Shown here: one piece after another, positions 14,591 to 64,000 of the stretch
Numbering within the stretch: the stretch's first letter is position 1
Layout: each line of letters begins with the position of its first letter
NCBI GenBank assembly: GCA_004369045.1
Contig: ML213540.1
Span: 38,498-102,497, forward strand
Source of the DNA: Heliocybe sulcata
Taxonomy: Eukaryota > Basidiomycota > Agaricomycetes > Gloeophyllales > Gloeophyllaceae
DNA: 64,000 nt
Direction: 5' to 3'
Position numbers and translations under genes: made by a program
The notes under the pieces: model-generated
Database searches by the model: none
What the model was told of the DNA's origin: nothing
Seen by the model: only the letters and a program-made list of their open reading frames with translations

Positions 14591-14902
14591 GCTGTTGCGC
14601 CCATTGATACACTTTCATTTCTCACATGCAGCGCATGATTTGGACCAAGATTGGGTTCGCGACCAAGCATTGAATGTGACATCATACCATGATGGGCGAT
14701 GTCAAGGACAGAGGTCCTTGGTATCCAGATGGATATGCGTGATGTTTGCGCAAGACATGAGTCCCGATTGGGTAGTGTCCAGAGCGATGCTCTATGTAAT
14801 CCAGATGGATCTTGATGCCAGTTGCATTCCCAGATGGGTCTCGTATCATGATTTCATGGGTGTCAGACAGCGATCTGACATGAACCATTCAGTGTGCAAA
14901 CA
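14591..14902. other. Spacer between RT remnant and fold-back element
   Basis: Nothing recognisable. The last 8 bases (TGCAAACA, 14895-14902) may be a target-site duplication of the following element. Confidence 0.4.
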
Positions 14903-21053: not shown

Positions 21054-21072
21054 CAGCGATGTGTAGAGTCAG

Positions 21073-27391: not shown

Positions 27392-27530
27392 CCCAGGGTG
27401 GGAATCCTGTCCCAAATAGGCAAAACAGCTCCCAGAACTGCTATAAAATCAGGAAAAAATCGGAAAAACTCAGAAAAATTTGTATGGGTCTATGATGTCA
27501 TGGCCTCTGTGTACCCTTGTTTACTAGACT

Positions 27531-27685
27531 CTAAAAATAGTACATATGCAATAGGGTAGCCATTTAGACCCAAATTTTTCATAGATCTTGTATTTGATGG
27601 CTGTTGCTTAGTTACTACAGTCTAAAAATAGTTCATATGCAACAGGGTCATCACCTAGATCCAAATTTCTTGCTGATCCTGGATC
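27531..27685 (+). repeat. Imperfect direct repeat, two units 91 bp apart
   Basis: CTAAAAATAG followed by T(A/T)CATATGCAA(T/C)AGGGT and CCAAATTT starts at 27531 and again at 27622, with ~65 bp similar in each unit. Confidence 0.65.
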
Positions 27686-28936: not shown

Positions 28937-30289
28937 TTTGCAGGTTGCTTTATATTGAATTTATATGAAATGTATGGGCACTTTGTATAACTATAGGGGA
29001 GATCTGGTCACATTATATGAGATTTATATGAAAATTGGGGGGGCCCTGCTGGGTGGAATCTCCTGCAAATCAGGGATCCTTATGACCCTATAGGGGACTA
29101 CAGTTTGACCCAATAACATGGGCAATATCTCTCAGGATAGAATTAGTGCACCCCCCTACCCTTCCAGCTGGTTCTCCCCCCACCTCCAGCCTCCTAGAAT
29201 GTTACCATCTACCTATTCTGCCACTTGGAAGTCTGATTGCATTTCTATACTGATGTACCTTAATTTAGATGGCCTCCAACAGCCCCCCCAGCTATTAGAA
29301 AGCACAAGTAGAGACCTGGGTTAGCTTATGGGACACAATGGGATGCACACAGCACTGCAGTAAGCACCTGACACTTGTCTGGATTCCAGTCCAGATGTGT
29401 GCATACTGGACTGGAAAGAGTGTCTATTGTAGCAGGACCTGCTGTTGGAAGCCATGTAAATTAAGGTACATAACTATAGAGATAAAATCAGACTTCCAAG
29501 TGGCAGAATAGGTGGATGGTAACATTCTAGGACGCTGGAGGTGGGGGGAGAACCAGCTGGAAGGGTAGGGGGGTGCACTAATTCTATCCTGAGAGATATT
29601 GCCCATGTTATTGGGTCAAACTGTAGTCCCCTATAGGGTCATAAGGATCCCTGATTTGCAGGAGATTCCACCCAGCAGGGCCCCCCCAATTTTCATATAA
29701 ATCTCATATAATGTGACCAGATCTCCCCTATAGTTATACAAAGTGCCCATACATTTTATATAAATCCAATATAAAGCAACCTGCAAAAGTATATAGCTTA
29801 TATATATGCATATAATATGAGCCAGATTCGGTATAACACTATATAAATGCACCACCAGATGGCATCTATCCAGTATAACTGCCCGGCAAGTTTATACAAA
29901 GGCACCTCAATATCATATACCCCATATATAAATATAGCAGTGCAGTATACAATCCCGTATAAACTGACAAACAGAGCATACAAATTCAGTACAAACCCCC
30001 TGCCACATCTCATAAACACAGTATAAATAGCCTGACATACCCTACAATTCTGGTATAAATCCAGAGCAATCCTATACACACACAGTATAATGTCCCCTTA
30101 ACCATATACAGTCAATATATACATCCTGTATAATCCTGGCTCAATCATGTATAAGCATACCATCATGTGGTCAAATTATATCCAGTATAATGCGACTACA
30201 ACCATAAACATATATGGAGTACTAAAGTGGTGCATATGAGTTTACTATAGTTGTGGTAAAATATATATATGAGTTAGGGCCCACTAGTG
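28937..30289. mobile_element. Fold-back element, copy 3 (left arm 5'-truncated)
   Basis: The left arm begins inside the consensus (TTTGCAGGTTGCTTTATATT, equivalent to ~15395) and lacks the outer ~490 bp. The right arm (29430-30289) is complete and ends GGGCCCACTAGTG, the same tip as the copy at 16741. Copia sequence starts immediately after. Confidence 0.82.
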
Positions 30290-43860: not shown

Positions 43861-44251
43861 CAAAGGCACCTCAATATTGTATACCCCATGTATAAATATA
43901 GCAGTGCAGTATACCATCCTATATTACTGACAAACAGAGCATACAAATGCACTACAAACCCCCTGCCACAGCTCATGAACCCAGTATAAATGTCCTGAGA
44001 GACCCTACAATTCTGATATAAATCCAGTGCCATCCTATACATGCCCTGTATAATGTCCCCTTAACATTATACAGTCAATATATACATCCTATATAATCCT
44101 GGCTCAATCATGTATAAGCATACCATAATGTAGTCACATTATATCCAGTACAATGTGACTACAAGCATAAACATATATGGCGTACTAAAGTAGTGTATAT
44201 GAGTTTACCATAGTTGTGGTAAAATGTGTATATTTTTAGGACCCACGACTT
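43861..44251 (-). repeat. Fold-back element, outer right arm fragment (copy 4)
   Basis: ~390 bp of the outer arm ending GGACCCACGACT, the same tip as the right end at 49302 and the left tip at 14903. It joins Gypsy gag on one side and the unclassified repeat on the other without spacer. Confidence 0.8.
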
Positions 44252-45058
44252 GCGCAGGATAGTGAGCGATGCTTGCCGGTGATTAGCAATGAGTAGCGAA
44301 TTTAGCAATGATTAGCAGTAAAGCGAGGGGGGATGCAGGAGACTCAGATGGAGATGCAGAGAAGAGAAGGAATATACTGGATTGCACATGGAGGACGGGA
44401 TACAAGCTCTGGGGGACTCTGGTAGCCTCAGTAACCTGGAGATCCTGTACAGGAGGTGCTACTCTAGTAGTCTACCTGCCTAAACCAGATATCCGAGGTC
44501 CCTGTGCTAAACAATAAGAACAATAGCTATATGCAAAACAATAAGACAAGCTAGACCAAAACCCGAACCTCAGAACAAGCTCCAGGAGCTGCAGCATCCA
44601 TATACAGAGGCAGCTGTTGTCTGACACAAGCATGGGAATGTGCGCGCGTTGCATCAAAAGCAATGCTGGATGACAAATGGTGCCGGCAAGCCATGCACAG
44701 CCTCAGAGATGACCCAAGCTGACAGAGACGAGAATGTTGGCTGATGCCAAAGTGTCGCTGTGTCGCTGCACCGCGCTGCTACCATGTGCCCCCAATGCGG
44801 ATGCCGACAGGAACACAGCACCGCTGCACTGCTGCATATTGAGAGGCCAGCGATAGCCTGTAGAATGATTCGGAGAGGCTGTCGGGTGAGGTCAGAGCTC
44901 CAGAAAAGCCAGGAAATAATGGAAAAATCCATAGAAACTTGAATATCACCCATAGAGCAATGCTGCGGATACGCTCACTATCACACAGGGCGTAGGAATC
45001 TGCGTAAATAGTCTGAAAATGTGTTTGCAGAGCTTAGAGACACGTAGGGCATATTAGC
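44252..45058. repeat. Unclassified dispersed repeat, copy 2
   Basis: Same orientation and boundaries as 20238-21053. The left end begins 1-2 bp after the fold-back tip, so the fold-back element probably inserted into, or recombined with, this repeat. Confidence 0.75.
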
Positions 45059-45650
45059 AGATGAAGACTTCTGACAGATCACCAGGTGATGATGCACCTG
45101 TGAGTAGTACTGCAGCCCAAAGATTATGGACTCTGATAAAAATGTTTGTATACAGATCAATTGCTGAAGGCAAGGACAACTTCTGCGAAGGAAACATTGG
45201 CCAAGCTGTCCTAGACTTCCCAAACAAGCATTGCTGAAATAAGTATTGCTTGTGGTTTGGGTTGGAGAGCTTTGTAGATCTCAGCAATATGCACGACATG
45301 ACTGAGTGATTGGCTAGTTGGATTGCAAAATGGTAGAGATGGGTGATCATGCATAGTCTTGGTAGTCTTGCTGTTGTTATGATCTTGGGTTCACCTATCC
45401 TTGTCAGAGGACCCTTTGTTTCTCACAACCCTCTTGTTCTTGATCATAGAGCTTGCATATGAATCCTGTGGCTATGACCTGTTGAACACACCTGCTTGTA
45501 ATGCAGCAGTTCCTCCTGTACAAGACATCATGGCTGACAAGTGTGATCCCATGCATGAGCTAAAGGCTCACCTCCTGGATTGACACCAGCACATCAATGC
45601 TCATGTCAGATTCATCAAAGAGTTTGATGTAATCCCCACTGTCTTTGATC
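45059..45650. other. Spacer, no gene recognised
   Basis: Short frames only. The right part (from ~45530, MADKCDPMHELKAHLLD) may be the decayed 5' side of the Gypsy pol remnant that follows. Confidence 0.35.
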
Positions 45651-46600
45651 GAATTGACAAACTCAACACTGCCCAGCATCTGAAAGACATAGACATCAAG
45701 TATAAATCCTGTGACCTGCTATCTTGCTGATCAAGTGATCATCCCACAATATGACAGCCTCCATGAGATCTTCTATCAACTGGCCATGATGCTCTTGGCC
45801 ATTTCAGTTTCAACAAATCATATGCATCTCTTTGCAGTGAACACTACTGGCCACACATGCATTGTGACCTGGAAGCTGCATATATTCTCTCCTGTGGTAG
45901 AGCAGGTCCTGTCTGCCCACTGCCTGTACCTGATGTGCACAGCAACTCCATGGCCATCTTGGCACAGATATCTGCCTGGTTGCCACTCACACTGACATCA
46001 CACCTGATACCCTCACTGTCCTCTTCTGCAATGTCTGGTACTGTTAAAATGGTTTACCACTTGACATTCGGGATCACCTTTTCTTGGACAAGTTCTGGGC
46101 CACCTTCAGCAAGGTCACTGACATCAAACTCAAGGTGTCAACCTTGTTTCATCCCAAAACAGATGGCTCAAGTGAACAAACCAACAAGACTGTAAACCAC
46201 TATATCTGATACCATGTAGACTGACATCAGAAGGGCTGGACTAATTTCGTTTCACTTGTATGATTCACACTTATGAATACACTAAATGCATACACAGGAC
46301 ATTCCCCATTCCAACTATGACATGGCTGCTCACCCACCTTATACCTTCACTGATCATCCCTCCTGCTGGTGCCCCACAGCTGATGTTGATGCTTATGCCC
46401 ATCACCCAATGACTGGAAAACAATGCCACAGAAGCACACAACCACCTCCTCCCTGCAAAGGTGGTCCACGCACATTCCATGAACAAGGGCAGGTGGTGAG
46501 GTAGGGGCTGGCAATCCCTGGTTCTCTGGGTTGGTTATAATGAGGCTGACAGCACATGGCTCCCCAGACATGAACTACAAGACTCTGCTGCCCTTGATTG
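45651..46600 (+). pseudogene. Gypsy integrase-region remnant
   Basis: Plus-strand fragments in alternating frames read in order. YDSLHEIFYQLAHDALGHFS and SEHYWPHM..DLEAAYI form the HHCC zinc domain. PLPVPDVHSNSMAI and DKFWATFSKVTDIKLKVS plus FHPKTDGSSEQTNKT represent the integrase core with its PxTDG...E-x-N-K signature. Many stops and shifts. It ends in decayed C-terminal text by ~46600. Confidence 0.55.
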
Positions 46601-47271
46601 CTGGCTCAAAGAACATCATCAAGATCAGTAGGCTGGTTATGAGATTGTTTTGGAGGGAGGGGATGAGTGTAAGTGTTATCCAGACAAACTGAAATAAATC
46701 ATAGCAAACAGGGGCCTACAGCTACGCAAAATGGACCTCATACATGTATCTAGATGTACTCCACACTGTCTCCCAGATAGAACAATCAGTTTGCATTGCT
46801 GCAGTTAAGTGGATATGAAGCTTTGATATGTGCTCCTTTAGCCTCAGCCACAGGCATTGCCACATCCAGACATCAATGAGGTCCCTTTCACATCTGCAAT
46901 CTTACTTCCATTTCTGACAAATGAGGGAGCTCAGGCTGATCAGAGACCATGTCACATAAGACAAGATCTTCTGCCATGCCACAAACTCAACAATCCAGCT
47001 TTCCATAGAGGTTGCCCCATGTATACGTGAGTGAGACCATAGCTCTACTTGATACACTGGCAGAACACAGGTCACCTCCATATATGCAAAGTGATCTGAC
47101 AGTGGGCCAATTGCAGACTGGCCTGTCTCTGACACACTTCACCTTGTGCAAGTGCACTTTCTTCATCATTCAGGCCCCTGCTAGTGGCAATGATATCTGG
47201 CTCCACAAGGCAATGGATGTCCGTCACCTTATTCAATGGTATTCTGACACCAAGCCTGATCTCATTGACCA
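46601..47271. other. Decayed region between integrase remnant and solo LTR
   Basis: A plus-strand frame up to 47362 contains HLIQWYSDTKPDLIDHV, but I recognise no domain. Confidence 0.35.
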
Positions 47272-47482
47272 TGTAAGGGCTACCTTAACAACCAGTGAGC
47301 TGGCAAGGCTGCACATTGTTGAAGGGAGTTCCAAAGCAAATATATACACTTATGAGCACTAGATACATCCACTAATAATATCTAAGGGCTCACCTGCATG
47401 TTGTTGAAGGGAGTTCCAAAGAGGAACAGGTTAAAGAACCCTTCAACAAGTGCAAAACACAAAGTGGCCGCACCGCATGACA
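47272..47482 (-). repeat. Gypsy solo LTR, 211 bp
   Basis: Same length and sequence as 54886-55096, including the doubled TGTTGAAGGGAGTTCCAAAG. Minus-strand ends are TGTCATGC ... CCTTACA (TG..CA). No internal region is attached and no clear 5-bp duplication is seen (gacca / tgtga). Confidence 0.8.
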
Positions 47483-47512
47483 TGTGACATCACGTCATGG
47501 TAGCTGAAAGCG

Positions 47513-49302
47513 CACTAGTGGGCCCTAACTCATATATATATTTTACCACAAGTATGGTAAACTCATATGCACCACTTTAGTACTCCATATATGTTTATGG
47601 TTGTAGTCACATTATACTGGATATAATTTGACCACATGATGGTATGCTTATACATGATTGAGCCAGGATTATACAGGATGTATATATTGACTGTATATGG
47701 TTAAGGGGACATTATACTGTGTGTGTATAGGATTGCTCTGGATTTATACCAGAATTGTAGGGTATGTCAGGCTATTTATACTGTGTTTATGAGATGTGGC
47801 AGGGGGTTTGTACTGAATTTGTATGCTCTGTTTGTCAGTTTATATGGGATTGTATACTGCACTGCTATATTTGTATATGGGGTATATGATATTGAGGTGC
47901 CTTTGTATAAACTTGCAGGGCAGTTATACTGGATACATGCCATCTGGTGGTGCATTTATATAGTGTTATACCGAATCTGGCTCATATTATATGCATATAT
48001 ATAAGCTATATACTTTTGCAGGTTGCTTTGTATTGGATTTATATAAAATGTATGGGCACTTTGTATAACTATAGGGGAGATCTGGTCATATTATATGAGA
48101 TTTATATCCAAATTGGGGGGGCCCTGCTGGGTGGAATCTCCCATAAATCAGGGATCCTTATGACCCCATATGGGACCACAGTTTGACCCAATAACATGGG
48201 CAATATCTCNNNNNNNNNNNNNNNNNNNNNNNNNNNNNNNNNNNNNNNNNNNNNNNNNNNNNNNNNNNNNNNNNNNNNNNNNNNNNNNNNNNNNNNNNNN
48301 NNNNNNNNNNNNNNNNNNNNNNNNNNNNNNNNNNNNNNNNNNNNNNNNNNNNNNNNNNNNNNNNNNNNNNNNNNNNNNNNNNNNNNNNNNNNNNNNNNNN
48401 NNNNNNNNNNNNNNNNNNNNNNNNNNNNNNNNNNNNNNNNNNNNNNNNNNNNNNNNNNNNNNNNNNNNNNNNNNNNNNNNNNNNNNNNNNNNNNNNNNNN
48501 NNNNNNNNNNNNNNNNNNNNNNNNNNNNNNNNNNNNNNNNNNNNNNNNNNNNNNNNNNNNNNNNNNNNNNNNNNNNNNNNNNNNNNNNNNNNNNNNNNNN
48601 NNNNNNNNNNNNNNNNNNNNNNNNNNNNNNNNNNNNNNNNNNNNNNNNNNNNNNNNNNNNNNNNNNNNNNNNNNNNNNNNNNNNNNNNNNNNNNNNNNNN
48701 NNNNNNNNNNNNNNNNNNNNNNNNNNNNNNNNNNNNNNNNNNNNNNNNNNNNNNNNNNNNNNNNNNNNNNNNNNNNNNNNNNNNNNNNNNNNNNNNNNNN
48801 NNNNNNNNNNNNNNNNNNNNNNNNNNNNNNNNNNNNNNNNNNNNNNNNNNNNNNNNNNNNNNNNNNNNNNNNNNNNNNNNNNNNNNNNNNNNNNNNNNNN
48901 NNNNNNNNNNNNNNNNNNNNNNNNNNNNNNNNNNNNNNNNNNNNNNNNNNNNNNNNNNNNNNNNNNNNNNNNNNNNNNNNNNNNNNNNNNNNNNNNNNNN
49001 NNNNNNNNNNNNNNNNNNNNNNNNNNNNNNNNNNNNNNNNNNNNNNNNNNNNNNNNNNNNNNNNNNNNNNNNNNNNNNNNNNNNNNNNNNNNNNNNNNNN
49101 NNNNNNNNNNNNNNNNNNNNNNNNNNNNNNNNNNNNNNNNNNNNNNNNNNNNNNNNNNNNNNNNNNNNNNNNNNNNNNNNNNNNNNNNNNNNNNNNNNNN
49201 NNNNNNNTGACTACAACCATAAACATATATGGAGTACTAAAGTGGTGCATATGAGTCTACCACAGTTGTGGTAAAATGTGTATATTTTTAGGGCCCACGA
49301 CT
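47513..49302. mobile_element. Fold-back element, copy 5 (centre hidden by gap)
   Basis: The left tip CACTAGTGGGCCCTAACTCA and the right tip GGGCCCACGACT are the two tip types of this family in reverse order relative to 14903-16741. The span of 1790 bp is close to the 1839 bp of the complete copy, so the N run appears sized correctly. The right tip lies 2 bp before the ATG of the MULE gene. Confidence 0.85.
48210..49207. other. Assembly gap (998 N)
   Basis: Run of N inside the inverted-repeat element. Long hairpins are a common cause of assembly failure. Confidence 1.
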
Positions 49303-49304
49303 CA

Positions 49305-52154
49305 ATGCCTGGCAATAACCAATCCAAGAAAGTCCGTCCTTCCCGGAAGCAACCCTGGATTATTGTGACCCCTGAGGAAGCCCGAGGAGATAAAGTACCC
49401 CTCCGAGCGCTTCGACAGGCAGCGGGGATCTACACCGACCAATTAGTGCTCACCCTGAAGCAAAAGATGGAGATAGAAGACTTGTATACCTCCAATAAGG
49501 TTGAAGATCACCAATTCAGCCACGATACAGATGAACAGGTGCAGGCGGCGACGGAATTGGCTTGCCTCAGACTGGATTTTGATACAAGGGTGTCGATGGG
49601 GTATCGGTGGACGAATAGATGGGTTAATACCAGTGGGAGTGGTGTGCAGGAGACTAAAAGGATTCTATATCAATGGTATGCCATCATATCGAAGTAAAAA
49701 CAGAACATTTGATGAGTTCACGTACCAGTCACTGCGCATACGATCATGCTGTCAAGGGCAAAAAAGTACGGCATGTACCATTCGACTTCACGGGATGCTT
49801 AGTGCATGTCGAAGTCACATACCATCTACACGCCAAGCATATTCTCCGGATACAAGGCCGCCTTGACCACAATGCAGCATGTCAAGCAGCCGAAATAGCT
49901 CGTATGCCTGTAATGCTGCTCCACCCCTCTGCAAGATGGAGCAACACTTACCGATATTCAAAGCAAGAATCGCAAGATGGTAGTTGCTCACACTTACCCT
50001 GGACAACTGAAGAGTCTGGAACACTCGCCGTACCGTTGGATACTCAAGCAGGCAGATACCCGCTCTCTTTATCGGCAATTCAACCAGATACAGGGTGTGG
50101 AGGTCCGTCAGCAAGCTCATATCAATATAGACGAATGGCTGGACCAGGACTCACCGCGATACAATAAGATACTCGCTGATGCTGTGTTCCATTACTCGCC
50201 AAGGGCTGCGAAAGGGGAACGCTTCGAGATCTGTGTCGCAATGGATAAAATGCGAGAGGCGGCTTGGCAGTACGCACACCACTTGCAAATCATTCTTGAT
50301 GGAACCTTCGGGATCTGCAACAAGAAGTTACTGTTATTCATTTTCATGGGCATCAATGGGAAGAGGAAGGGCATACCTCTGGCATTTCTATTGTTCTCTG
50401 CACCCTCTGGAAACAAGCAGACATCAGCCGGCTACAACACCGACATAATCGCGTCCTTGCTGGACAAGTGGAGACGGGTGCTGGGAGCAAGGGACGGCGC
50501 GGGTTTTGAGCCGCTCGTTGCCATCACCGACACTGACTTAATGGAGCGCAGAGCTTTGATTCAAATCTTCCCGAGGATTTGGCTGCTGATCTGCAAGTTC
50601 CATCTTCGTCAGTCCTGGAGAAACCACCGAAATTGGCTCATAAAGGGTAACTCGCCTGTTCACATGACGGTGAAGAACCGTCTCCGACGCGTTGAAGAAG
50701 CCTTAGTGACCACACTTGATATCAATGATGCCCGAGCCATTATCGAGCAAGAGCAGCAGTTCTTGACTGCAATGCTTGAAGGCATGCATGCCGGCATTGC
50801 AAAAAATGCACTTGAGCATCTGATCAGCTACCTACTTGGGTACTGGGTCCGTGACAGCCTATGGTGCAATTGGTCCGATTACAGGTGACAGGTGGCCGCT
50901 TGGCTCATGAAGTGCCCGTTCGAGGGTGTCCTACCAACAACAAATCACCTCGAATCGTTCAATGGCGTCTTCAAGCGGAAACACCTGCGTCGCTGGCAGC
51001 GTAATGGCAAGCGGCTTCGCGAAGACCAGTTCTTGAAGATAAGTGTTATCCATGTTCTACCTGCGATATTCATGCAACGTACCATGGAGGACAACAAAGA
51101 GGCTCGTCGCATTGCACAGATCTGTCTCCTGCCCGGAGGGTGTGCATTACTTGCACGCCAAGCAGAGAACATGGATCTGTCAGTGCTTCCTACGGTCGCT
51201 TACCTCCTCCCAGACGAAACCAGGCACCATGCAGCTTTGGATATTGTCGGGAATGCTCAGATCAGTACCCCAAGCCTAAGCAACTGCGGTCTGGTCTTCG
51301 AATGTTATTCGACGCTTGCTACGGACTTCGATCCTTCGCCACGCAAATACGCCGTGTTTCTAGGCTTCAATGGCACTGCAACTTGTGACTGCCATGATTT
51401 TACTCACCGCGGCAGGGCCTGCAAGCACATCCGTGCTGCATTGATTCAATCAGATCGACTCCGGGTGTTGAAGTTCCGATCCCTGCCCCTGATCCCTATT
51501 CCAACTAGTCCTGAGCACGCTCGGGCGCTGCAGGCCAGTCTATCTGTATCCACGGAGCCAGCAAGTGTCCAAAGTCCTAGTGCGGTGCAGGATGCATCTC
51601 TTGAGGTAGAGAAGATACTACAGGAGCTGGAGGAGAGCATGGACCGGGAGAACGGGGCTGAAGAAGACAGTGATGATGTTGAGGATGAGGACATCGATGA
51701 CAATGAGAGCGTCGCGACCGACGCGCCCGAAGATGATGAAGCCAAAGGCGGGCAGCCTTCGGGATTCTCTTACTCTTTCACAGATATGCCGACGGGAGGA
51801 AGCGTGAAGGCCGGAATTGACCAGCAAGCTGTCTCACGGGTGTTCCATGAATTATCTCAAGTTGCGTCGAAGTTTGGCAACATGGCGTTCTACTTGAGGG
51901 ATGTGAGCTCGGCAACAGCAGACGATGTCAATAACATGATCACGTTCAAGTTGCAGATCAACCTTCTTTCTGATGCTCTCGATCAAATGATCTTATCTTG
52001 CCGGGACCCTGTACCTTCTGAGGATAATCTCAGTACGCCTACTGATCGCTCACGACCATCCACCCCACCCCCGAATAAACGTCCTCGGCTTGAGATCATG
52101 GGCCCGTCCCCCGAGAAAGCACAGCAGAGGAAGCCTTCATGGGCACCCCACTAG
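49305..52154 (+). pseudogene. Mutator-like (MULE) transposase with SWIM finger, inactivated
   Basis: Coding text runs from ATG 49305 to the stop at 52154. A +1 shift lies at ~49672 (YQ/CHHIEV junction), a small deletion shift at ~49930 (restored at LTDIQSKNRKMVV), and an in-frame TGA at 50886. Domains: an N-terminal basic segment and a zinc/DNA-binding-type region; the MULE transposase core (ILDGTFGICNKKLLLFIFM, LVAITDTD, WLLICKFHLRQSW); TTNHLESFNGVFKRKHLRRW after the TGA; a SWIM zinc finger CDCHDFTHRGRACKH (~51390-51430); and an acidic region and proline-rich tail. The ATG lies just outside the fold-back tip. No TIR of its own was found downstream to ~52345. Three lesions in ~950 codons suggest fairly recent inactivation. 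Confidence 0.9.
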
Positions 52155-52345: not shown

Positions 52346-54745
52346 TTAGGCAGTTAAGTGGTACGGCCTTGCCTCCCTGCAGTTGGTACAGAAAGCCGCC
52401 TTCCACTCATTGCCGTCCTTGATCCAGACGTTGTTGAAGCCCCAGCGAACATCAAGCTTGGTGAAGTACTTCACACCTCGCAAGTGATTGATGAGGTCAC
52501 CAATGAGAGGGAGAGGGTACCAGTTCTTCACCGTCATGGCATTCAGCTTGAGGTAGTCCTGGACGAAGTGAAGGCCACCATCCTTCTTCTTAACGAAGAA
52601 GACGGGGGAGGTGATGGGATACTTGGAGGGCTGGATATGCCCCGTCACAAGGTTCTCTTCCAGGAATTCGTCGAGCGCGACTTGTTCGACTGGAGAGAGC
52701 AGGTAGACCTTGGACTTGAACAGCTCTGCATCCGGGGTGACCTCGATTGTGTGGTCCCAGTGCTTGCAGCCTGGCAGGGTGTTGAAGGACTCCTTCTCGA
52801 AGACATCCTGGAACTCGAAGAACTGCTCGCGGAGGCCGTCTGAGGGATCGCGGACGGTATTCTTTGCATGGGCTTCCGCGAGGCGCTGTGAGACAGTCGA
52901 GTTGCCTGGATGAACTCCTCGTCGGGTGCGATGGTGGTGACAAAGATGCGATCACCTTCCTCCAAGACTTCCTCATCTATGCCATGCTCAGTGGGTAGAG
53001 GGTCAAACTTGGGTTCTTCGTCCTCCTCATCCTCGACGTGGGCATTAGGGGCAGGTCCCGACTGCAGAGCCAGCTTGTGCTTCTGATCAAGGCGATGAGC
53101 AGCAAGGCGTAACTTCCTCTCCTGCTGTACCTCCAGTCTGCATGCCTGGCAATGAGCAGGGCAGCGCATCATGGCAACCTTGCCAGTTGGCCAGTCCACA
53201 TCTGGGTTGTGCTCACGGAGCCAGCCATGCCCAAGAATGATGTTGTGCTTCCCAAGCCTGGTCACTGCAAGGTTGATACATTCTGTATGGTTGCGGTAGC
53301 AGAGGACCATGTCGAAGATCTCCTCAATCAAGCCAGCCTCGTTTGGGGTACTGTCCACATTGAATACAGGTATCGGCTGGAGTAGCTTGCAGGTGGGCAG
53401 ACCCTGTCCGTGAACATAGGCCAGACTGATGTACCCAGCACTAGTTGCACCACTGTCAATCAGAGCATCGGTCGAAACAACCTTCGCCATCTGCGTAGAC
53501 TCTAGCTCCACCTCAATTCTGGTAGAATGTGGTCCAGGGATGGCAGAGACAGTGTACTTGCGCGCAGAAGCTTACGCTCCCAATGTGGTAGCAGGTGGTA
53601 TGGGACAAGCTTCTGCTGAACAACTGGGGGTGGAGGCGCAAGCGTGGAAGTGACTGCCTCAGAAGCAATTTCTGCCAAAGGGGACTCTAGGGAGTTGGAG
53701 ACCTCTTTGACAGGGAGTGAGGTGAAGCAGTTGGTGGATTCAAGGGCTGGCTGAGGGGTTACAATGACTGCAGGTGCTGGTGGTGGTTCCATGATCGGGG
53801 CAGGCTCAGGAGGGGTCTGATCCACAACCATTAAGCTGAAAACTTCACTCTCGCGAATGCTTCGAGTGTGGCGCTTTGCTGCAGAGATCCACCCTTCAAG
53901 GTCCGAGTCAGAAGGGCAGCCCAACAAGGTGGCTAGCGGGGTCTCAATACCCGGGTGAAGACTGCGGCGGAAGTTCAGGACATTCAGGGATGCACATCCT
54001 GGATCCAAAGAGCGTAACTGGGCAAGGCGGAGCAACCGACGGAATGAGTCGATATACTCCTCGATTGAAGACGAACCCTGGTAGTAATCAATACCTACCA
54101 AGGTTAAGCATCTGCACATTCATAGGGGGAAATGAACTCGCATGTGAACTCATCCTCGAAACCAGCCCAGTCCTCAAAGTAGGGGCTGCCAGTCTCACGC
54201 TCGACCTTGTAGAGGTTCGTCACAAAGTCTGCAGCTCGCCCAGACTTGAAGAAGCCGAGCGCACATCAGATCTTCGTCTGGTCATTGGGGAAATGACTGG
54301 GGTTGGATCAGACGAGATTCCAGATGTGCCAAGCATGCTCCCGCTTCCCATCAAAGTTAGGGGGATTGGGGAAGCATAGAGGTGTGAATGGGGAAGTGTT
54401 TCCAGGCCCAGGAGTAGGGGACTGGAAGCGCGACGGCACTCCACCATAAAATGATGGGGTAACTGAGGGGGTAGGTGTAGGGGGTGTGAAGGGTGTGTGG
54501 GAAAGGTCACCAGGGTGCGGGGAGACTGGTTCACTAACAAAAGAGTAGGGGGTATTCGCACCAGAAGCCAGACCAGAGACCAACGACAACAACTGATCCA
54601 ACTTCTCTCTCACACCAACTTCGTCAACAGCAGCGGCAGAGCTGCAAGCCTCTAACTGTTCCAGCCTAGCTAGGATACTGGAGGTGGTCACAGTGTCCAT
54701 AGTTGGCCCAGGGAACGGGTAGAGAGGCTGTATGCTTCTGCACAA
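52346..54745 (-). pseudogene. Gypsy element: gag, protease and first part of RT (minus), 3' truncated
   Basis: Gag starts near 54704 (MDTVTTSSILARLEQL), carries Pro/Thr-rich spacer text and, after frameshifts, a capsid-like domain (YYQGSSSIEEYIDSFRRL, LRSLDPGCASLNVLNFRRSL) at ~54080-53900. Protease has ALIDSGATS (~53460) and LGHGWLREHNPDVDW. A 1-nt shift at ~52905 leads into RT: SPVEQ..LDEFLEENLVTG, SPVFFVKKKDGG, LNAMTVKNWYPLPLI and KLDVRWGFNNV, stopping at 52346 before the YxDD motif. RNase H and integrase are missing. The 5' LTR is at 54886-55096. Confidence 0.88.
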
Positions 54746-54885
54746 AGGAGGGGGCTATATGATCCCACTGGAATGGCCACTGGGTCTTGACTAACTGTAG
54801 CAAAGGAACACTAACAGCCAGATGCCAGTAGCAGCCTCTAAGTGTGGAATAAAGCCCAGTCCTTCAAAGAGAAACCTGTTCCTGC
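54746..54885 (-). other. Gypsy leader / primer-site region
   Basis: Between LTR end (54886) and gag. The first bases inside the LTR on the minus strand are GCAGGAACAGGTTTC, the expected place for the tRNA primer site; I cannot name the tRNA. Confidence 0.5.
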
Positions 54886-55096: not shown

Positions 55097-56095
55097 CAAA
55101 GAGTGAATTTTAAATATTAGCTTGTCATGTAGCTCTGGCTGTATTCCAGATCTAACAAAAGATATCCATATACAGCAGAAGTTTGTTAAAAATTTTAAAT
55201 TGTTCGCTTACAAAGAATGATGGCCAACATTTCTTTCAGCACCAGTCAGACAAATGTAAAATTAAAACCAGCGACCAACATTTGTCATGATCATATACTT
55301 GATATATGGGTTCTCATTTGGGTCTGTTGCAGTATCCTGAAGTAAATTTGAAATTCTGAACATCAAGCATATTTTGTAAGATATACCAGATATGGGTGAT
55401 AATCCCTTTGCAATGCAATGTTGGAAATTGTAATCAATTAAAAACCTCGGTGCAAATAAGGATTATACTTATAGCTGCACATCAGACAATATTCATAATC
55501 CACTCCAACATATTCTAACACAATGTAGCTCCATATGTATTTCATATATGTGAATTCCTATACAAAATATAACATATATCAAAGATAGTCTGCTATTTCT
55601 GGTGAATATTATATATCAAAGCTCACACCTCAATTTAGGTCGTCGTTTACAGTGACCACGTATATTTGGTGGCGAGTAAGGGCGCCCAAAGTTCGCATGT
55701 ATTACTAAGCGCATATTTTTAGTCGCGCCTTGATATCATCAGGCGCCTCCATGCTTCCGTCCAATTTCGGGTACCCCGCCAATCTTATTTCCCTATCCAG
55801 AGTGCTACGCCACTCTGGCATTCAAACTTCAAATCAGGCAATCTGCAAGCACATCGCCCTCATCGCCATCCCCTCCGTCTTCAACGATGGATTCTACCGC
55901 CGATCCTCTCTTGCCCTCGAGGCTGTCCTTGTGCCATGGAGCTCGACGGCCACCTGATGCCTCGATGAAAACCTTTTCACTGCGGGCCTCTGGTCTCAAG
56001 ACGTGCTGGATGGTCCTTGTCAGGGTAATGGGCGTGTATAAATGCTGAGCTGGGTTTCGGTCTGCAACCAGCATCTTCCCTCAACGTCTTACCAC
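55097..56095. other. Strongly AT-rich spacer grading into GC-richer promoter region
   Basis: 55100-55640 is very AT-rich and free of coding signal. From ~55640 the base composition returns to normal. A TATA-like GTATAAATG at 56035-56043 lies ~55 bp before the ATG at 56096. Confidence 0.45.
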
Positions 56096-57678
56096 ATGCC
56101 TCAGCAAATTTTGCGCTCTCGCTCTCTCCCTGGTGGCCCTGCATTATCAGCCCTGTCTACCCCCTCCCCCAGCACTCTTCGTCACCCCGAGGGCATGTCC
56201 AAGTGGGAGAAGACCTTGCTTAAGCACGACCTAGTCAAGGTTAAGAACCTTGCGACCTGCGACTTTTCGGGCGCTGTCTGTAAAATCAAGACCTTCACCT
56301 AGTACGTGTATGGCTTGTCCTTCATTAACATTGTCCTCATGTATTTCTCTCGCTTTGCTAGCCCAGTTAATGCAGCCGGTGCACCCATCCCCCCGAACAT
56401 GCTTGCATGTCATATGCGCCAGACAACATGCCCATTCCCAGTATGTATGTGTGGTGCAGAGTGCAAGCTCTTGCGTGTTGCCAGTGGGGAGTTCCGGGAC
56501 AAACACGCCTTCTGCTGCATCATTCGTGGATGCTCCTTCTGGTGTATGTGGTTTATTCATCCTTCTTGACTCCCAGCTGCTTATTATTCTCACTCCAGTG
56601 GTCGTTGATGATGTTTTATCTAACGAGTCCGGGGAACTTAGCTTCGAAGAGTACCAGCCAAGTAAGTCTGCCTCAGTCGTGCTGAAGTCTTCATACACTG
56701 AGGTTCATCTCTCATTCAGTCGGAGCAATGACACGGAAGCGTCACGCTCATTCTTCTGCCCAGGAGGCTGAAGATGCATCGTCCAGCCTTGCGGAGCAGG
56801 CTGCTATTGGCGTGGCATTCAAGGACGGTGAGGAGGGTCATGAAGGTGCGTTGACAGTGTATAGGTCTTGATAGCTGTATTGACCCTTAACATTGGCAGG
56901 CATGCAACATGCAGCGCTGAAGTGCGAGACCCCGCCTCCCTCCAACAACGTACCTGTCCCAGCGTTTTTGTGGAGCTCAAGCCCTGACGGTGGCCCTGCT
57001 CTGCCCAAGAGAAAGAAGAAGATCAATGTCTGGCACCCCTTGCATGTCCCAAAGCTGGACCTCTCAATGCCTTCCACTCCGGTTGACGGTATGTCCTTCA
57101 GCTGCAGGAAAGAGCTCGTATGACTCATTCCCATACAGGCTCATCGCTGAGTAGCAACAGTACTAGCGATGCGACCTTCTCTACTCCCTCCTCGACCGGT
57201 ATGTCTTCTTTTACATCCTTTCTTATTGAAGCATTAGTCATGCCTGTCATTCAGGCTCCTTGTCCACCATCTCCTCAGAGGGCAGGGGTCCGATTTATGG
57301 AGCAAGTGCGTAACCTGGTTTGTTTCACTTTCTATGCCGCTTAAGTACCTTCTCTATCTAGGGTATCTCTGGTCCGGCTACAGCCTTCAATTTCCGACCA
57401 CTCCTCTATCACACTCACGTGCATACAACTTGTGGAGCCCTCCTACAGCTGCCCCGCCTGTTGCCCCGGCTGCCTGCACCATCAAAGAACTCGCCTCTCA
57501 GCATGGCGTTGCTACCTCCAAGTTCTGGAATTCATGGGCTCAGTGTCCATCCTGTGGGCGTGTTGTACATGCTGATCTACTGATTTCCGCTGCTGCAGGT
57601 CATGGCGGCAACAGAGCTCTTCCTTCTGGCACTTCTACGCATATGTGCTTTATTGACTTGACTTCAGACAGTGAGTAA
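56096..57678 (+). CDS. Nine-exon gene of unknown function
   Basis: Proposed exons: 56096-56301, 56362-56444, 56485-56541, 56599-56661, 56720-56845, 56900-57088, 57139-57198, 57255-57305 and 57362-57678. All have GT..AG borders and consistent phases, joining to 1152 nt (383 residues plus stop). That many phase-compatible short introns (40-66 nt) is strong evidence of a real gene or a recent copy of one. The protein starts MPQQILRSRSLPGG and has a charged block MSKWEKTLLKHDLVKVK. It is Ser/Pro-rich and disordered in the middle, with PALPKRKKKINVW. I see no known domain or membrane segment. The last exon may instead be spliced at 57671 (GTGAGT) and the gene may run on towards the TET/JBP block. 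The second exon has two possible donors (56441, 56445); the second keeps frame. Confidence 0.55.
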
Positions 57679-60598
57679 TGCAGCCAGCTTATTGCTTCAG
57701 TTAAATGTATTACCTATATCCCGTACTACTACAAAAATCTTGTAATGCGTAGCTTGGCCGTGCTGGCATATGTAATATACCCTATTCAGCGCGAGAACGA
57801 TTAAGTGCCTGAATCGGCAATGCACCTTTCACGCCGGCGCTGTGGCTATCTTCCAATGCACAGTGTTCTATGCGATCGCCCTCGTTGCAGTCATCTGGAC
57901 TCCTTTGCTACTTCCTTAAGCTTCAACTCTTGACGCGCTGGCAACAGTGAATAACAGGCCGGCATCTCGCCCTCTTCGCATCAACATCCCCGGCGGCGTG
58001 GCCTTTGATTCCTCCTCTTTGTCTTACAGAAGTAGCCTTCTACTCCTCACAAAGCCTATGGAATGTTGGCCATCCGCTAGACTGATGTTGGAAGGCCACG
58101 GGACCAGATTTTGGAGAGGCCTGGGTGGTGGGATCGCAGGGTAGAGCTCGTCCTAGAGTCGTGGCGAAACTTTCCAGGTATGTCGCTCGCATTCACTTCC
58201 TTCCTTCCTTTGAGCAGATTAGTGAAACATCTTGAGTGGTGAATTTCATGCAAAGCCATTCGCACCACCCGTATGCTGATGCAGTGATTTATTGTCACCA
58301 GAAACCGGTGCTTCGTGCTTCTGAATGCTGCAGCAACAGCTGTACTCATTGACGCCCTTCGAATGAGGGACATTTCCCCGGGTCTCCTGTCCTCCTGCTC
58401 TCCTCTCCAGCACTGACGTGACTCGTGTTCTGAACTTCTGCCGTATCGCCGCAAATAGACGTATTCCTGTGAGGGAAGCAGTACTCAAGCACCGAGCAGC
58501 CTGACGAGCCCACCACATCCACGACACTGCCGCCGCAAATTCTGCCCTCATCATCTGCCCTGTCGACACCGCCACAGCCGGGGACCCCTGTGCACAGCCA
58601 TTCCCAGTCTATTCGACGACTTTCCTTCTCGTTTCGCAGCAGAAAACACAGTCAGGCACAAGTGTACTATCACCAGCAACATCATTCAGCGGCGTTGGCA
58701 CCACAGCCTCCGCCTCCTGGCTGTCCTAGCGCCTTGAACGTGTCTACGCTAGCACGAACCACGGCTGACGAATTCGATCACCGTGCAACACGAACGGATG
58801 GCCAAGAGCCCGCGCCTCACTGTGGTGAAGTCGCTCTGTTTGCTGTGTGCGTGCGCATTGCTGATTTCGGCACCAGTCATGCTCCCTCTCCACCCCGACT
58901 GTGGAATACAGGCATACCGGCGTCCGGCGAGATGTTTCTCATGGCCAGACTCTCCCATCGCACGCTCTTCGTCGGCTGCTCCCTGTCTCCTGTTGCGTTG
59001 AAGCCTTTTGTTGCGACGGAGCCTCGATGCCGCGATCTGTGCATGCTTCTTTGTTGGCCTGGGGAAGCAACAGCTCTAGGAAGGGCGTTGGAAAGGAGCG
59101 AGGAGAGACGGATCATCGTTGTGCGAGCAGCGTTAGCCTGCTTTTCGTAAGTCTACGTTGTCCTTTGTCGAGTGAACAGGTTGCTGACATCGATACAGCC
59201 ACTCGACGGCGGTGACCGGCCTTAGGACTTCACGCAGCCTCCCTCTTCACCCGCGCTTCCGCACTTGCCGTCTCTCGTCACCGACACCTGTCACATCCCA
59301 CGATGCACGCAGCCTCCCTCTTCACCCGTGCTTCCGCACTCGCCATCTCTCGTCACCGACACCTGTCACATCCCACGCTGGTCTGGCATCGCGATGGATA
59401 GCCCCAGTCGTGCAGCCTTCTCTCACACGTTGGTCAGCTTCGAAAATCAACGGCGCGAGAGAGGGCGTACCAAGGAGGGGGACGATGATGGGTATACAGG
59501 TCGACACTGCACGAGTGGTGTCTCTGTGCTTGGTGAGTCCACTTTCTGTTTGCCGGGTATCAATGGTGCTGACTTAGCCTGCAGCGTTCCTCCTTCCCGC
59601 TTCCCTCTTCCACTTCCTGCATCCCATCCAGCCTTGTCTGGACCATTTACCGGCACCCTTCACTGTCTCTCCCACTCCGCTCGCCACTGTGTTAAGGTCT
59701 GGGGGTCTGATGTGGTGTCCAGCTCGTGCACCGCGTGTTCGCTGAGAGCAACTGACCTGGTTTAGTATAGTAGTGCGGTGCTGGCCAGCCGCCGTCTCCA
59801 TCGATGTAGGTACAGATTGGCGTCTGCGTTGAGGTGTCAAGGCATCGACAGCAGTGAAAGTGTCTGTGGCGGAAGTGGGAGTGTGTCTAGGATGCAAGCA
59901 GGGCCAGGAATGCAGTGCTTTGCTTCGCCGCACTTGGGACTTGTATACACTCGACGTATCGACTGTAATATGATTTTAGGGCCAGTCTACATATGCCCTG
60001 CATCACTAAAGCAGTCTGTACAGATGCTAAAGAACTTGCGAGGCAGTTGTTTTTGTCAAATATCCAGCCAATACCACGCCGGCTGCACCCTGCAAATCGC
60101 ACTATTGTGTGTCGGAGTTTGCACACTCTGCGCTCTAATGTTCATTACACGTATCTGCTAAGGCTTTGGACCTGTCTCCTGTATATCGGTGCTGCTCTGG
60201 TTCTCCACAGACGGCGTGGCTCTTCGGGCACTCAGGATCTAATGCAGTCAGATATCTGGGACCCTGGGTAGTGGAGAGGTGTGTTTTGCACCTCTTATGT
60301 AAGGGACGGTGCGCTCAATTTAAAAAAATTCGCCAGCCTATCCTCTGAATACAACTCTCTCTTCTTTCCCCTCGTCTTGGCTATGTGCCTGCCTGCGCTG
60401 TCTGCAGCTTCATAGGCGAGCATGGGCATACTTGGTAAGTCACCGCTTTGCCTTGCATCTCCATCTGCTTCGCATGCAGCTCTGCCATTGCCTTCTCGAC
60501 CACAGCCTTGGGGACCTGAGGGCAATGCCTGGGTGATTGCACTGTAGCATACCATCTATTCCACTTCGGCGTGCTCCCGAGCCTCCCTTGCTGATGCT
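57679..60598. other. 2.9 kb with splice-like signals but no resolved gene
   Basis: Normal GC content and several donor/acceptor pairs (for example ATGGGCATACTTG|GTAAGT at 60422-60439 with acceptor GCAG at ~60477). I could not build a frame-consistent model into the dioxygenase ORF at 60599. It may hold 5' exons or the promoter of that gene. It includes the tandem duplication at 59231-59375. Confidence 0.35.
59231..59375 (+). repeat. Tandem duplication, period 75 bp
   Basis: CACGCAGCCTCCCTCTTCAC at 59231 and again at 59306, each continuing for ~70 bp to CACATCCCA with a few transitions. Confidence 0.85.
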
Positions 60599-62277
60599 TT
60601 GCCTCTAGGCTTCGTTCTACGGGCTTTTCACGTCACGCGCTCTGGGGCTGCATTTTCTCCGTATGCACTAGCTCCCCAGCCTCCGGTCATTGTCTCTGAG
60701 CCTTTTGATGTCATTGAGACGCTATGTCGTGCTGATGAGGCTGCCTATGCTCGTGAAATCGCCAGCGATGAGGCTCCGCTGGATGAGGATGACGTTGAAC
60801 TTATGGATGAGTCCCCGTACCTTGCTGCCAACATTCCTGGGCCAGCTGCACCTTCAAGAGCAGAGCCTGCGCCAGCTACATCCTCGAGTGCACCCTCATT
60901 TCGTCCTGCCCTGCCCGACTCCTGCACCCCGGCTGCATCTGGCTCTATCTCCCCAGCCAGCCTGCCATCGTCAGCTTCAAAAAAGAAGAGCTATGATAGG
61001 CAAAGGTACCGTGAGAGACACAGGGTGAAGCAGAGGGCTGTGCAGGTTGAGGAAGGTACCACACAGAAGGAGGTTGGAAAGAAGTGCGCTTATACAGAGG
61101 CGTTCCTCTCAGCTGAGGCAGATGTCGAAGATATGCATGGGAGCACATCAGGCTACCAGGCACAGCGTCACTCAGTGGGGTCAGAGGAGCGGCACCCATA
61201 CACTTTGGATGACCCAGAGGTGCAGGGATTGAGGCAGGTCAATTGGGATGGCCGGTAAGCGGCCTGTATCCAGGATTATGACTGCTGCTTACTCTTGGCT
61301 GTGGCAGGTCTGTTATGCCCATTGCCCTCGGCAACTCTGATGACTCCATTGTCATTGCGATGCTGGCAGGAGCACCGAGGAACGAAGAAGACTGGCAAGG
61401 AGTCACCAGCCGTGCTGCATCAGCCCTTGTCAAAGCAGCAGGCAAGTTCTGATTTACGCCGAATCGAAGCAATCAGCGCCGAGGTGATTTTCCTGCTGCA
61501 AGCTTTGGGATTTCGTATGGTGGCGGCTGAAAAGTAAGCATGTCCTCTTGGTCACCTTTCATTAGCTGACTGGCTTCTAGGTGCCTGGGAATATTGCGGT
61601 CCACTCAGCTGTGAATGCAGCGGTGTTTGCGACTCTGTTTTCAAACCCCGATGTTCTGCAGATATTGTGCTTTGTGGACCGTGAGTGCTGGGCCTCCCTC
61701 TGCCAGCGAGCATTGTGCCTGACGAGTTCGATGGCACTCTCCAGGCTCTTTGGACCTGTTTGCCCCTCTTCTCTACACATATATGGCTGCAGTCATGGCA
61801 GGTATATGCAGCAACTATCCCCTCCTAGAGAGGTTCTCAGACACATCATTTGCATATGCCTGCTGCTGTTTCAACCTGGGGATGCAGGTATGGGCTTATA
61901 TCCACACCGACCATCTTAACCTACCCTTTGCATGGTGTGCAATAACCGCTCTGGGTGATTTTGATCCTGACTATGGCGGTCACCTTATCCTTTGGTCATT
62001 AGGCCTCGTTGTGCGGTTCCCCCCTGGCTCAACTATATACATCCCATCTGCCCTCGTACGACATTCAAACATCCCTGTTCGGCAGCATGAAAGGCGATTC
62101 TCTATCGTCCAGTGGATGCCTGGGGCTCTCTGTCGATGGCACGACTTTGGCTTCAAGCCTGCTAAAGCCTTTGAGGCAGAGCATGGGAAGGAAGCTGCAT
62201 CAGAGGCTAACAGAGCCAGGTGGAAGAGTGGAGTGGACCTCTTTCCAAGGCTGGCATATTTTCGATGCAAAATGTAG
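60599..62277 (+). pseudogene. TET/JBP-type 2-oxoglutarate/Fe(II) dioxygenase, two in-frame TGA codons
   Basis: Exons 60599-61254, 61308-61533, 61581-61680 and 61745-62277 join phase-perfectly to 505 codons. The N-terminal ~200 residues are acidic and disordered with a basic KKKSYDRQRYRERHR segment. The C-terminal domain matches the fungal TET/JBP pattern. It reads FNLGMQVWAYIHTDHLNLPF, the H-x-D iron ligands at ~61903-61911. Next comes WCAITALGDFDPDYGGHLILW, then PPGSTIYIPSALVRHSN with the distal His at ~62062. ERRFSIVQW provides the likely 2-oxoglutarate Arg. Known members oxidise 5-methylcytosine and are expanded next to DNA transposons in Agaricomycetes. TGA codons at ~61452 and ~61528 interrupt an otherwise intact frame, and both are one C-to-T step from CGA. 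The 5' end may lie further upstream. Function, if any, depends on those codons being real. Confidence 0.8.
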
Positions 62278-62365
62278 GTAGCAAAATGCAATGTATTTTA
62301 TGGCAAAGCTGCCCTTGATTGCGCTAGCTATGCTACAATACATGATAGCTATAAGGATGAAGGCA

Positions 62366-63752
62366 TTATAGGGTGCTGCATGATTTTTTCCGGTGCTGCT
62401 TCCACTCTGGAGATGGAGGCAAGAGATTGGATCTCCTGCCTGATCGTTTCTTTGTCCTTCCAGAGTGAGTCTCTGCTAGCAATTGCGCACCTTGAATGGC
62501 TGGAATTTCTGAGCCTTCCCCTAACATTTCACTTGTCCCAAGCACCGCAGCGAGGTTCGCCTGGAGCGATGGAAGAAGCTGCTGTAACTCAAGAATGTTG
62601 GGAGAGGAGGAGATGTGTGCGTCAGAGAGGAGCAATGAGAGGCCATGAAGTCGAGGAAGCAGGGAGTCGATGGACTGCTCAGCATGCTGCTGGATTTGCA
62701 GCTGGATGGCAGAGGAGTTTGCAGTGAGGAGCCCAATCTGTATGAAAGAAATAAGACAAGAGCTACTTGCTGGCTGAGAAGGCGCACCCCATCTGGAAGA
62801 GCCTCTTGCTCATTATCCTCATGCTCGCAGTCAACTGCACTCTCTAGCTCAACAATATCGCTGCCATCCTGCTCATCTGGAGTGGGGAATTTACTGGCAG
62901 CATGGTGCCAAGCGTCAGGATTGCATCAATGACACCTGCTGGGTCGTCACAACTTGGCACATAGCCAGCTGGACCTAGCACGTGCCGGAGCTGCTCATCT
63001 CGCAGCTGCTTGGCTGCTTGGAGCGTAGAAGGGTAGCAAAAGGAAGGAGCATGGCCTTGCGATACCCAATGGTCAACATATAGATGTAGAGCACGAAGAT
63101 GCTTGCATGCACCACCACGATGCATGAAATCCAGGCAGGTGCATGCAGCATAGCCAGAGTGCTGCATTGTAAGGCTGTAGCTGTCATCTGGATGGGATGT
63201 CGAGCGACATAGTGCAGTGTACTGGAAGGTGTCGCCCGATTGGTGGAAGTTGTGCAATAGGCGCGCATGGAAGATTGCCTGTGCTGCATCATCCCGCACT
63301 GCATCTGGTTCCCACCAACAAGCCGCTGCAGATGTCCGTGCTCTCTCTTTCAACTGGTGCTCCTCTCTTAGCACTTCAACAAGGTTTACACCCCCGGCGT
63401 ATCTGCGGAATCATTCAGCAAGCCAACCATGGTACCGATCCAGGTGTCGATGGGCTGCAAACATGTCTGGCAGGATGCTGGTGATGAGAACGTGGATAAG
63501 GAAATCGAAGCGCATGCGACTTCGTGAATACTGGAGTTGGGGGATATACTTGCTCTTTAGTAGGCTATTAAACGATTCTAGATGGTTTGTTGTCGTGACG
63601 ATGGCGTCTACTGGTTTGTTCAGCAGTACAGATGCAATGATCCGACCCTTCATTGACCAACTCTGCCATAGCGCTTCTGGCATCCACGTCACACATAGGT
63701 AGTCAAGGAATGCAAGTCCAGGAGGCCATGCTGTAGGCGTATTGTAGTACAT
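62366..63752 (-). pseudogene. Second MULE transposase, C-terminal part with SWIM finger
   Basis: Minus strand. 63411-63752 codes the end of the transposase core (WQSWSMKGRIIA, VTTTNHLESFNSLLKSKY), equivalent to TTNHLESFNGVFKRK in the 49.3-kb copy. After an in-frame TGA (63411-63413) the same frame continues (62844-63374) with a SWIM finger CTCLDFMHRGGACKH. The tail is shifted in frame (62366-62635) and ends KKSCSTL. It is a different MULE subfamily from the first. The N-terminal half is not recognisable between 63753 and the window end, so it is truncated or interrupted there. It lies tail-to-tail with the TET/JBP gene, the stops 89 bp apart. Confidence 0.8.
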
Positions 63753-64000
63753 ACCAGTAAGCTGTTGGCAGCAAGTTACGAGTTGAGCAGTAGTTACTGT
63801 GGATGGTTACTGGCCAGCATTATAATGCAGCAGCTACCCAAATAAAAGTGAATAAAATGGGGGAAAATGCGAAAATGGGTGCAGATGGATTAGATATCCC
63901 AAAGAGGATTGATGTGAGGAGGACAAACATATCCTGGGTGGGACAAAAACATATGGACATGGAGGAACATATGACATAAGCCTAAAAATGCGAAAAAGAA
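63753..64000. other. Window edge; no coding sequence recognised
   Basis: A/G-rich text with AAAATGCGAAAA words. Either an intron or spacer of the MULE gene, or unrelated flank. Confidence 0.4.

What the first reader, a model, noticed from the sequence alone, without database searches (positions are those of the whole stretch)
60599..62277. TET/JBP DNA dioxygenase gene beside a MULE transposase
The C-terminal frame holds every ligand expected of TET/JBP enzymes (HTD, distal RHSN, ERR). In Agaricomycetes such genes are known to be expanded in association with KDZ transposons; here the immediate neighbour is a SWIM-bearing MULE transposase, tail-to-tail with 89 bp between stops. An oxidised-methylcytosine writer carried with a MULE would be an unusual pairing and could let an element counter host DNA methylation. 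Two TGA codons suggest this copy is dead, but the family may be live elsewhere.
Basis: partly seen in the sequence, partly recalled or inferred. Interest (0 to 1): 0.75.

Follow-up and report, generated by a model that had tools for sequence, protein, structure and literature searches.

The report
Dead TET-like gene beside MULE transposase
In a fungal genome, a broken gene for an enzyme resembling those that oxidise methylated DNA lies tail-to-tail with a broken Mutator-like transposase; two of its relatives in the same genome sit beside a different transposase, so this looks like a variation on the known habit of fungal transposons to carry such enzymes, with the Mutator link not proven.

Summary
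A 2OG-Fe(II) dioxygenase gene (about 60599-62277, +) has HTD, RHSN and ERR motifs and in-frame TGAs at 61450 and 61528. Its stop is 88 bp from the stop of a convergent frame of a MULE transposase gene. Profile comparison still links it (hhalign 90%; 40 shuffles at most 1.6%) to a second family in this genome that matches Tet_JBP below cut-off. I call it a divergent TET/JBP-like enzyme.

Four loci of this family and five MULE loci were found (lower bounds); this is the only adjacent pair. The C2 and C6 copies share a convergent arrangement with an rva_4 integrase and a third gene. All four copies look inactive. TET and MULE are equally CpG-depleted, but so is an unrelated Gypsy-like fragment nearby. 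I found no terminal repeats, target duplication or second copy, so "TET-carrying MULE" is unproven.

Transposon-borne TET/JBP genes in fungi are published; MULE is not among the 11 carrier lineages in the one survey I could read. Ordinary in kind, mildly interesting in the pairing.

The parts
60599..61254 (+). TET-like gene, N-terminal exon (start codon not determined; frame open from 60548)
   Evidence: ORF; tblastn to C2 and C6 copies; donor GTAAGC at 61255 read from sequence
61308..61533 (+). TET-like gene, exon 2, interrupted by in-frame TGA at 61450-61452 and 61528-61530
   Evidence: intron borders read from sequence, no transcript data
61581..61680 (+). TET-like gene, exon 3
   Evidence: ORF 61581-61919; splice sites inferred from sequence
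61745..62277 (+). TET-like gene, C-terminal exon with HTD, RHSN and ERR motifs and stop
62278..62365 (.). 88-bp spacer between the two convergent stop codons
62366..62809 (-). open frame, possible C-terminal tail of the MULE transposase; homology to other MULE tails not shown
   Evidence: ORF; no tblastn match
62844..63735 (-). 3' part of a MULE transposase gene (MULE-A): SWIM region and TTTNHLESFN region; continues beyond the window to about C38:106490
63739..63888 (.). left arm of a 150-bp, 98% inverted repeat; right arm C38:104623-104772, N run of 2125 bases between; splits the MULE-A gene
49275..52154 (+). second MULE transposase gene (MULE-B), no TET beside it; comparison copy

Best explanation
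A decayed DNA transposon of the MULE type carried a divergent TET/JBP-like 2OG-Fe(II) dioxygenase as cargo, convergent with the transposase. When alive, the enzyme would have oxidised methylcytosine on the element's DNA and weakened the host's CpG-methylation silencing (inferred from the published fungal proposals, not shown here). This copy is dead: two stop codons in the dioxygenase, an insertion in the transposase, and CpG loss in both. Shown: the two genes, their arrangement, their decay, the relatives. Inferred: one shared element, the TET activity, the anti-silencing role.
For: Only 88 bp lie between the two convergent stops. CpG observed/expected is alike in TET 0.50 (0.40-0.62), MULE 3' part 0.53 (0.43-0.65) and MULE 5' part 0.59 (0.51-0.67), against 0.82 in the nearby MULE-B and 1.07 in the gene to the right. 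Family-1 relatives on C2 and C6 are also convergent with a transposase-type integrase, in a conserved three-gene block, so the gene family travels with transposons. The integrase and third-gene pieces used as queries find nothing on C38:38498-143580 (3618 of these bases are N). The genome has PF00145 DNA methylase hits at four places, and the transposon genes measured elsewhere are CpG-poor (C2 and C6 TET 0.25, C22 TET 0.31, integrases 0.39 and 0.35), so there was probably methylation to counter. hhalign links the family to Tet_JBP-matching copies. The mechanism rests on PMC12730594.
Against: No terminal inverted repeat or target duplication found. Single copy: the left flank finds only itself. 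The other 4 of 5 MULE loci and 3 of 4 TET loci found lack the pairing. The MULE's true C-terminus is not established, so the 88-bp spacing carries less weight. Equal CpG loss is not specific: a Gypsy-like fragment at 52346-54754 has 0.53 and the stretch 56040-57680 has 0.57, while 57700-60390, just upstream of the TET, has 0.85. In the same window MULE-B ends 191 bp from a convergent RVT_1-like frame (24.3 bits, below cut-off), and on C24 a KDZ and a Plavaka hit lie 4.7 kb apart, so close neighbours of unrelated type do arise here.
Confidence: 0.38

Rival explanations
1. The TET-like gene and the MULE are neighbours by accident in a repeat-rich stretch: the TET came as cargo of another element (such as the rva_4 integrase type on C2 and C6), and the MULE inserted beside it, or the reverse.
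For: 2 of 4 family-1 loci are with rva_4, 1 of 4 with MULE. Neighbouring transposon genes of different type occur within 200 bp and 5 kb. No shared termini found. A Gypsy-like fragment nearby has the same CpG depletion. The MULE's own end is uncertain.
Against: No match to the integrase or third-gene pieces on the part of C38 read here. Only 88 bp between the stops, with no terminus recognised there. CpG loss alike in both genes.
Confidence: 0.46
2. The dioxygenase is not TET/JBP but another 2OG-Fe(II) family (2OG-FeII_Oxy_3-like) carried by transposons, acting on some other substrate.
For: No Tet_JBP match, best Pfam match 2OG-FeII_Oxy_3 at E 0.025, below its cut-off. Against single fragments, hhalign scores a PKHD-type hydroxylase (17%) above the Naegleria Tet (4%). 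The family-1 profile alone finds no dioxygenase of known structure, nor does the family-2 profile.
Against: hhalign to the Tet_JBP-matching family 2: probability 90%, E 1.6e-6, with HxD and the distal His in register; 40 column-shuffled controls reach at most 1.6% and twelve other pieces from these loci at most 1.2%. The mixed profile A1 ranks the Naegleria Tet first (E 0.0026), though it contains family 2.
Confidence: 0.14
3. The dioxygenase is a host gene, next to which a MULE landed.
For: A large open gene (1087-aa frame, no Pfam match at E up to 0.1) lies to the right of the MULE; the subtype has a single locus.
Against: CpG depleted, unlike the gene on the right; three relatives are CpG-poor too, two with an integrase.
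Confidence: 0.02

Closest known systems
TET+ DNA transposons of fungi (Kyakuja, Zisupton, Dileera, Plavaka, EnSpm, IS3EU, hAT, Harbinger/PHISTA, ESTA, Helitron1, Helitron2); PMC12730594, text parts 1-5 of 7 read
   Same: A TET/JBP-type gene beside a DNA transposase in a fungus; several transposase types in one genome
   Different: MULE/MuDR is not among the 11 carrier lineages there (MuDR occurs twice, both in the introduction; MULE and Mutator do not occur). Complete elements with termini are shown there, not here.
IS3EU-type integrase elements carrying TET (same paper)
   Same: The C2 and C6 relatives pair TET with an rve-like integrase (rva_4)
   Different: There the TET lies between transposase and alpha-kinase genes; here the order is TET, integrase, unknown gene. 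That rva_4 is the IS3EU transposase was not tested. IS3EU TET+ elements are reported there from Pucciniales and Tuber, not Agaricomycotina.
MULE (Mutator-like) transposons with SWIM
   Same: MULE domain over cut-off, SWIM region, TTTNHLESFN block aligned with C21 and MULE-B
   Different: No terminal repeats or target duplication identified; gene disrupted; C-terminus uncertain
Plant Vandal MuDR anti-silencing proteins and oomycete MuDR with SET domain (introduction of PMC12730594)
   Same: MuDR-type elements with a protein that counters or alters silencing
   Different: Other protein types; no dioxygenase

Membership tests
TET/JBP dioxygenase | Fe(II) ligands HxD and distal His, plus Arg for 2OG | tested here: met
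   HTD, RHSN, ERR in window copy; the role of each residue is recalled
   No match at E up to 1; nor in the genome search with PF12851
TET/JBP dioxygenase | Profile homology to members | tested here: met
   hhalign 90% to family 2, which scores 24-27 bits against Tet_JBP, below its 34.9 cut-off
TET/JBP dioxygenase | Closest fold TET/NgTet | tested here: inconclusive
   Both models unusable, mean pLDDT 37 and 43; no fold search made
TET/JBP dioxygenase | Oxidises 5mC in DNA | not testable with these tools
   needs biochemistry
MULE transposon | MULE transposase domain | tested here: met
   PF10551 36 bits against cut-off 27.6
MULE transposon | SWIM zinc finger | tested here: inconclusive
   16.9 bits, below 19.6; homologues 28 bits
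MULE transposon | Terminal repeats with 8-11 bp target duplication | tested here: not met
   none beyond shuffled level
TET-carrying transposon | TET gene and transposase inside one pair of termini | tested here: not met
   no termini found; so not filed as a TET+ MULE
TET-carrying transposon | Repeated pairing at independent loci | tested here: not met
   MULE pairing 1 of 4 TET loci, 1 of 5 MULE loci; rva_4 pairing 2 of 4 TET loci, 2 of 5 rva_4 loci; counts are lower bounds

The most novel reading that the evidence does not exclude
MULE (MuDR) transposons are a further, unreported lineage that captured a TET/JBP-type dioxygenase, and this genome holds one TET subfamily carried by two unrelated transposases (MULE and an rva_4 integrase) in the same convergent arrangement.
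Probability: 0.33. Interest if true: 0.55.

Novelty: new member of a known kind. Interest (0 to 1): 0.36.

Why it matters
If the pairing is real, the Mutator-like superfamily would join those that carry a putative eraser of DNA methylation, and one enzyme subfamily would have moved between a MULE and an integrase element. The genome shows a matching pressure: CpG observed/expected is 0.25-0.6 in most of the transposon genes measured, against about 1 in the gene beside the locus and at the left end of the window; two other MULEs are less affected, 0.81-0.82 and 0.92, and a family-2 TET gene has 0.72.

Tried and rejected
Terminal repeats: ungapped inverted-repeat search, exact and one-mismatch target duplications of 8-11 bp with 14-20 bp ends, and 24-base comparison. 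The best pair, window 57737-57756 with C38:108066-108085 (18 of 20), is reached or beaten by 5 of 30 shuffles and by 6 of 20, has no matching target duplication by eye, and was rejected. The same 24-base test on the C6 and C2 blocks gave nothing above shuffles (C2 is cut by the contig end). Flank DNA as a probe for other copies: the left flank finds only itself; the right flank finds a separate short element and a 41-base stretch at five places, not identified (no tRNA, no Rfam match). Structure prediction twice, both unusable. Viral contigs: no relative. NCBIfam none, PHROGs E 0.41 at best for the window piece. Structure-sequence search with the window piece or family-1 profile: only chance matches. 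An intron removing the first TGA was considered by eye and rejected: the frame is conserved through it.

Literature: Iyer et al. 2014 (PNAS) is not held, so what it says about MULEs is unknown to me. Paper searches: (listings, 8 empty). The statement that MULE is not a reported carrier rests on PMC12730594 (parts 1-5 of 7 and passages; figures and supplements not seen) and on those searches only. PMC8290104 and PMC12477816 were seen as passages.

Full report
What is there. The window lies in a 31.6-Mb genome of 51 contigs (C38:38498-102497). The plus-strand gene at about 60599-62277 has four exons by inspection: up to 61254, 61308-61533, 61581-61680, 61745-62277. The C-terminal exon holds HTD, RHSN and ERR. 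On the minus strand, 88 bp away stop to stop, frames of a MULE transposase gene run from 62366 out of the window to about C38:106490. Its MULE domain, at C38:105065-105391, scores over the Pfam cut-off. The last frame, 62366-62809, has no shown homology to other MULE tails (best alignments reached by 61 and 37 of 500 shuffles), so the protein's true end is open. The gene is split by a sequence with 150-bp arms, 98% identical and inverted, window 63739-63888 and C38:104623-104772, with an N run between; an assembly fold-back is not excluded.

Is it TET/JBP? Those three (C37, C27, C5: family 2) score 24-27 bits, under the 34.9 cut-off. hhalign between the window's family (five rows from four loci) and family 2 (three rows) gives probability 90% and E 1.6e-6, with HxD and the distal His in register. 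In a repeat of this comparison (89%), 40 column shuffles reached at most 1.6% and a reversed profile 0.1%. Twelve other pieces from these loci (MULE, integrase, third gene, N-terminal or upstream TET frames) scored at most 1.2% against either profile. Against: single rows alone give 48% for the window and 0.3-27% for the other four. Neither the family-1 nor the family-2 profile finds a dioxygenase of known structure, and a PKHD hydroxylase fragment scores slightly above a Naegleria Tet fragment. Only the mixed profile ranks the Naegleria Tet first (E 0.0026). Both structure models were unusable. I take it as a divergent TET/JBP-like dioxygenase, not settled.

Relatives in the genome. The C-terminal frame finds five hits at four loci: the window, C2:2155886, C22:193581 and C6:1348883-1349387; rows are 41-49% identical to the window over the alignment. 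On C2 and C6 the gene is convergent with an integrase gene (PF24764, rva_4) followed by a third, unnamed gene; the three genes keep order and orientation. rva_4 has 11 hits at five loci, two of them these. The 10 kb around the C22 copy (2648 of them N) show no integrase or MULE match to my query pieces. All four copies look inactive: window, two TGAs; C2, ERR replaced by EIW; C6, EKQ and a broken frame; C22, distal His replaced and the frame cut short (residue roles recalled). Codon positions 1, 2, 3 differ by 0.39, 0.26, 0.58 between window and C2, and the third position differs most in every pair compared, so the family evolved as protein.

Is the MULE its carrier? PF10551 hits five loci: C21 end, C38:88786 (MULE-B, window 49275-52154), C38:105065, C22:115184, C25:96603 (lower bound). 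Only C38:105065 has a family-1 TET beside it; MULE-B lies 11 kb from the same TET. By my own arithmetic, uniform placement of five MULEs and four TETs in 31.6 Mb gives about a 0.4% chance of one pair within some 3 kb, but transposons cluster, so the real chance is higher. Controls for clustering: MULE-B ends 191 bp from a convergent RVT_1-like frame (24.3 bits, below cut-off), and a KDZ and a Plavaka hit are 4.7 kb apart on C24. The anchors are loci that I merged by hand from the hit lists (KDZ 21 hits to 11, Plavaka 39 to 21, rva_4 11 to 5). For a single element: alike CpG depletion in TET (0.50) and both MULE parts (0.53, 0.59) against 0.82 in MULE-B and 1.07 in the large open gene to the right, with a step near C38:108000; no match to the integrase or third-gene pieces on C38:38498-143580; and only 88 bp between the stops. 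Against: the Gypsy-like fragment (0.53) and the stretch 56040-57680 (0.57) are as depleted, and 57700-60390 between that stretch and the TET is not (0.85); the MULE's end is uncertain; no termini, no target duplication, no second copy. I put chance neighbours slightly ahead of one element (0.46 to 0.38); the single element is stated as the best explanation because it is the one with a mechanism, not because it is proven.

Mechanism. In the published proposal a transposon-borne TET oxidises methylcytosine and so loosens silencing (PMC12730594; the author notes that this function is not experimentally validated for the transposon genes). Here the background is visible in part: PF00145 hits at four places, and CpG observed/expected of 0.25-0.39 in the C2, C6 and C22 genes measured, against 0.9-1.1 at the left end of the window. 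No methylation data were available. CpG loss by deamination tends to make TGA stops (general knowledge). The role of this enzyme is inferred, and this copy cannot perform it.

Known or new. That survey lists 11 carrier lineages in fungi, and MuDR is mentioned only in its introduction. My paper searches listed no other paper that I recognised as reporting a TET+ MULE; Iyer et al. 2014 could not be read. So the kind is known, this locus is a new member, and a MULE carrier would be a new variant if proven.

Noticed in passing
C2:2154600-2159700 (L015) and C6:1345700-1350600 (L017): Two decayed copies of a three-gene block: TET-like gene, convergent rva_4 integrase, third gene of unknown family; 37-73% protein identity between the main matching pieces, CpG 0.25-0.39 of expectation in the four pieces measured. 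Possibly an undescribed TET-carrying integrase element.
   Followed up: partly
C37:39237, C27:3471, C5:598326 (L018-L020): A second TET family, the only Tet_JBP-matching one found in the genome, at three loci, each within 15 kb of a Plavaka hit; one member also matches phrog_24024 (unknown function) at E 1.2e-7.
   Followed up: partly
C38:107281-107826 (right of the MULE, outside the window): 546-bp element with about 55-bp terminal inverted repeats and 8-bp target duplications (clear in two of three copies read), relatives 81-93% identical on C19, C26, C12, C15 and C6.
   Followed up: partly
window 63739-63888 and C38:104623-104772: 150-bp, 98% inverted repeat around an N run inside the MULE gene; a nested insertion or an assembly fold-back.
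   Followed up: partly
window 12000-30000 and 44000-48000: Long stretches with CpG observed/expected 0.12-0.62 and TpG/CpA up to 1.56, a mark of methylation-driven decay; their genes were not annotated here.
   Followed up: no
window 59231-59380: 75-bp tandem duplication, 95% identical, upstream of the TET-like gene.
   Followed up: no
C21:549529-551670 (L021): A MULE transposase with a 713-aa open frame, CpG near normal (0.92), running off the contig end.
   Followed up: no
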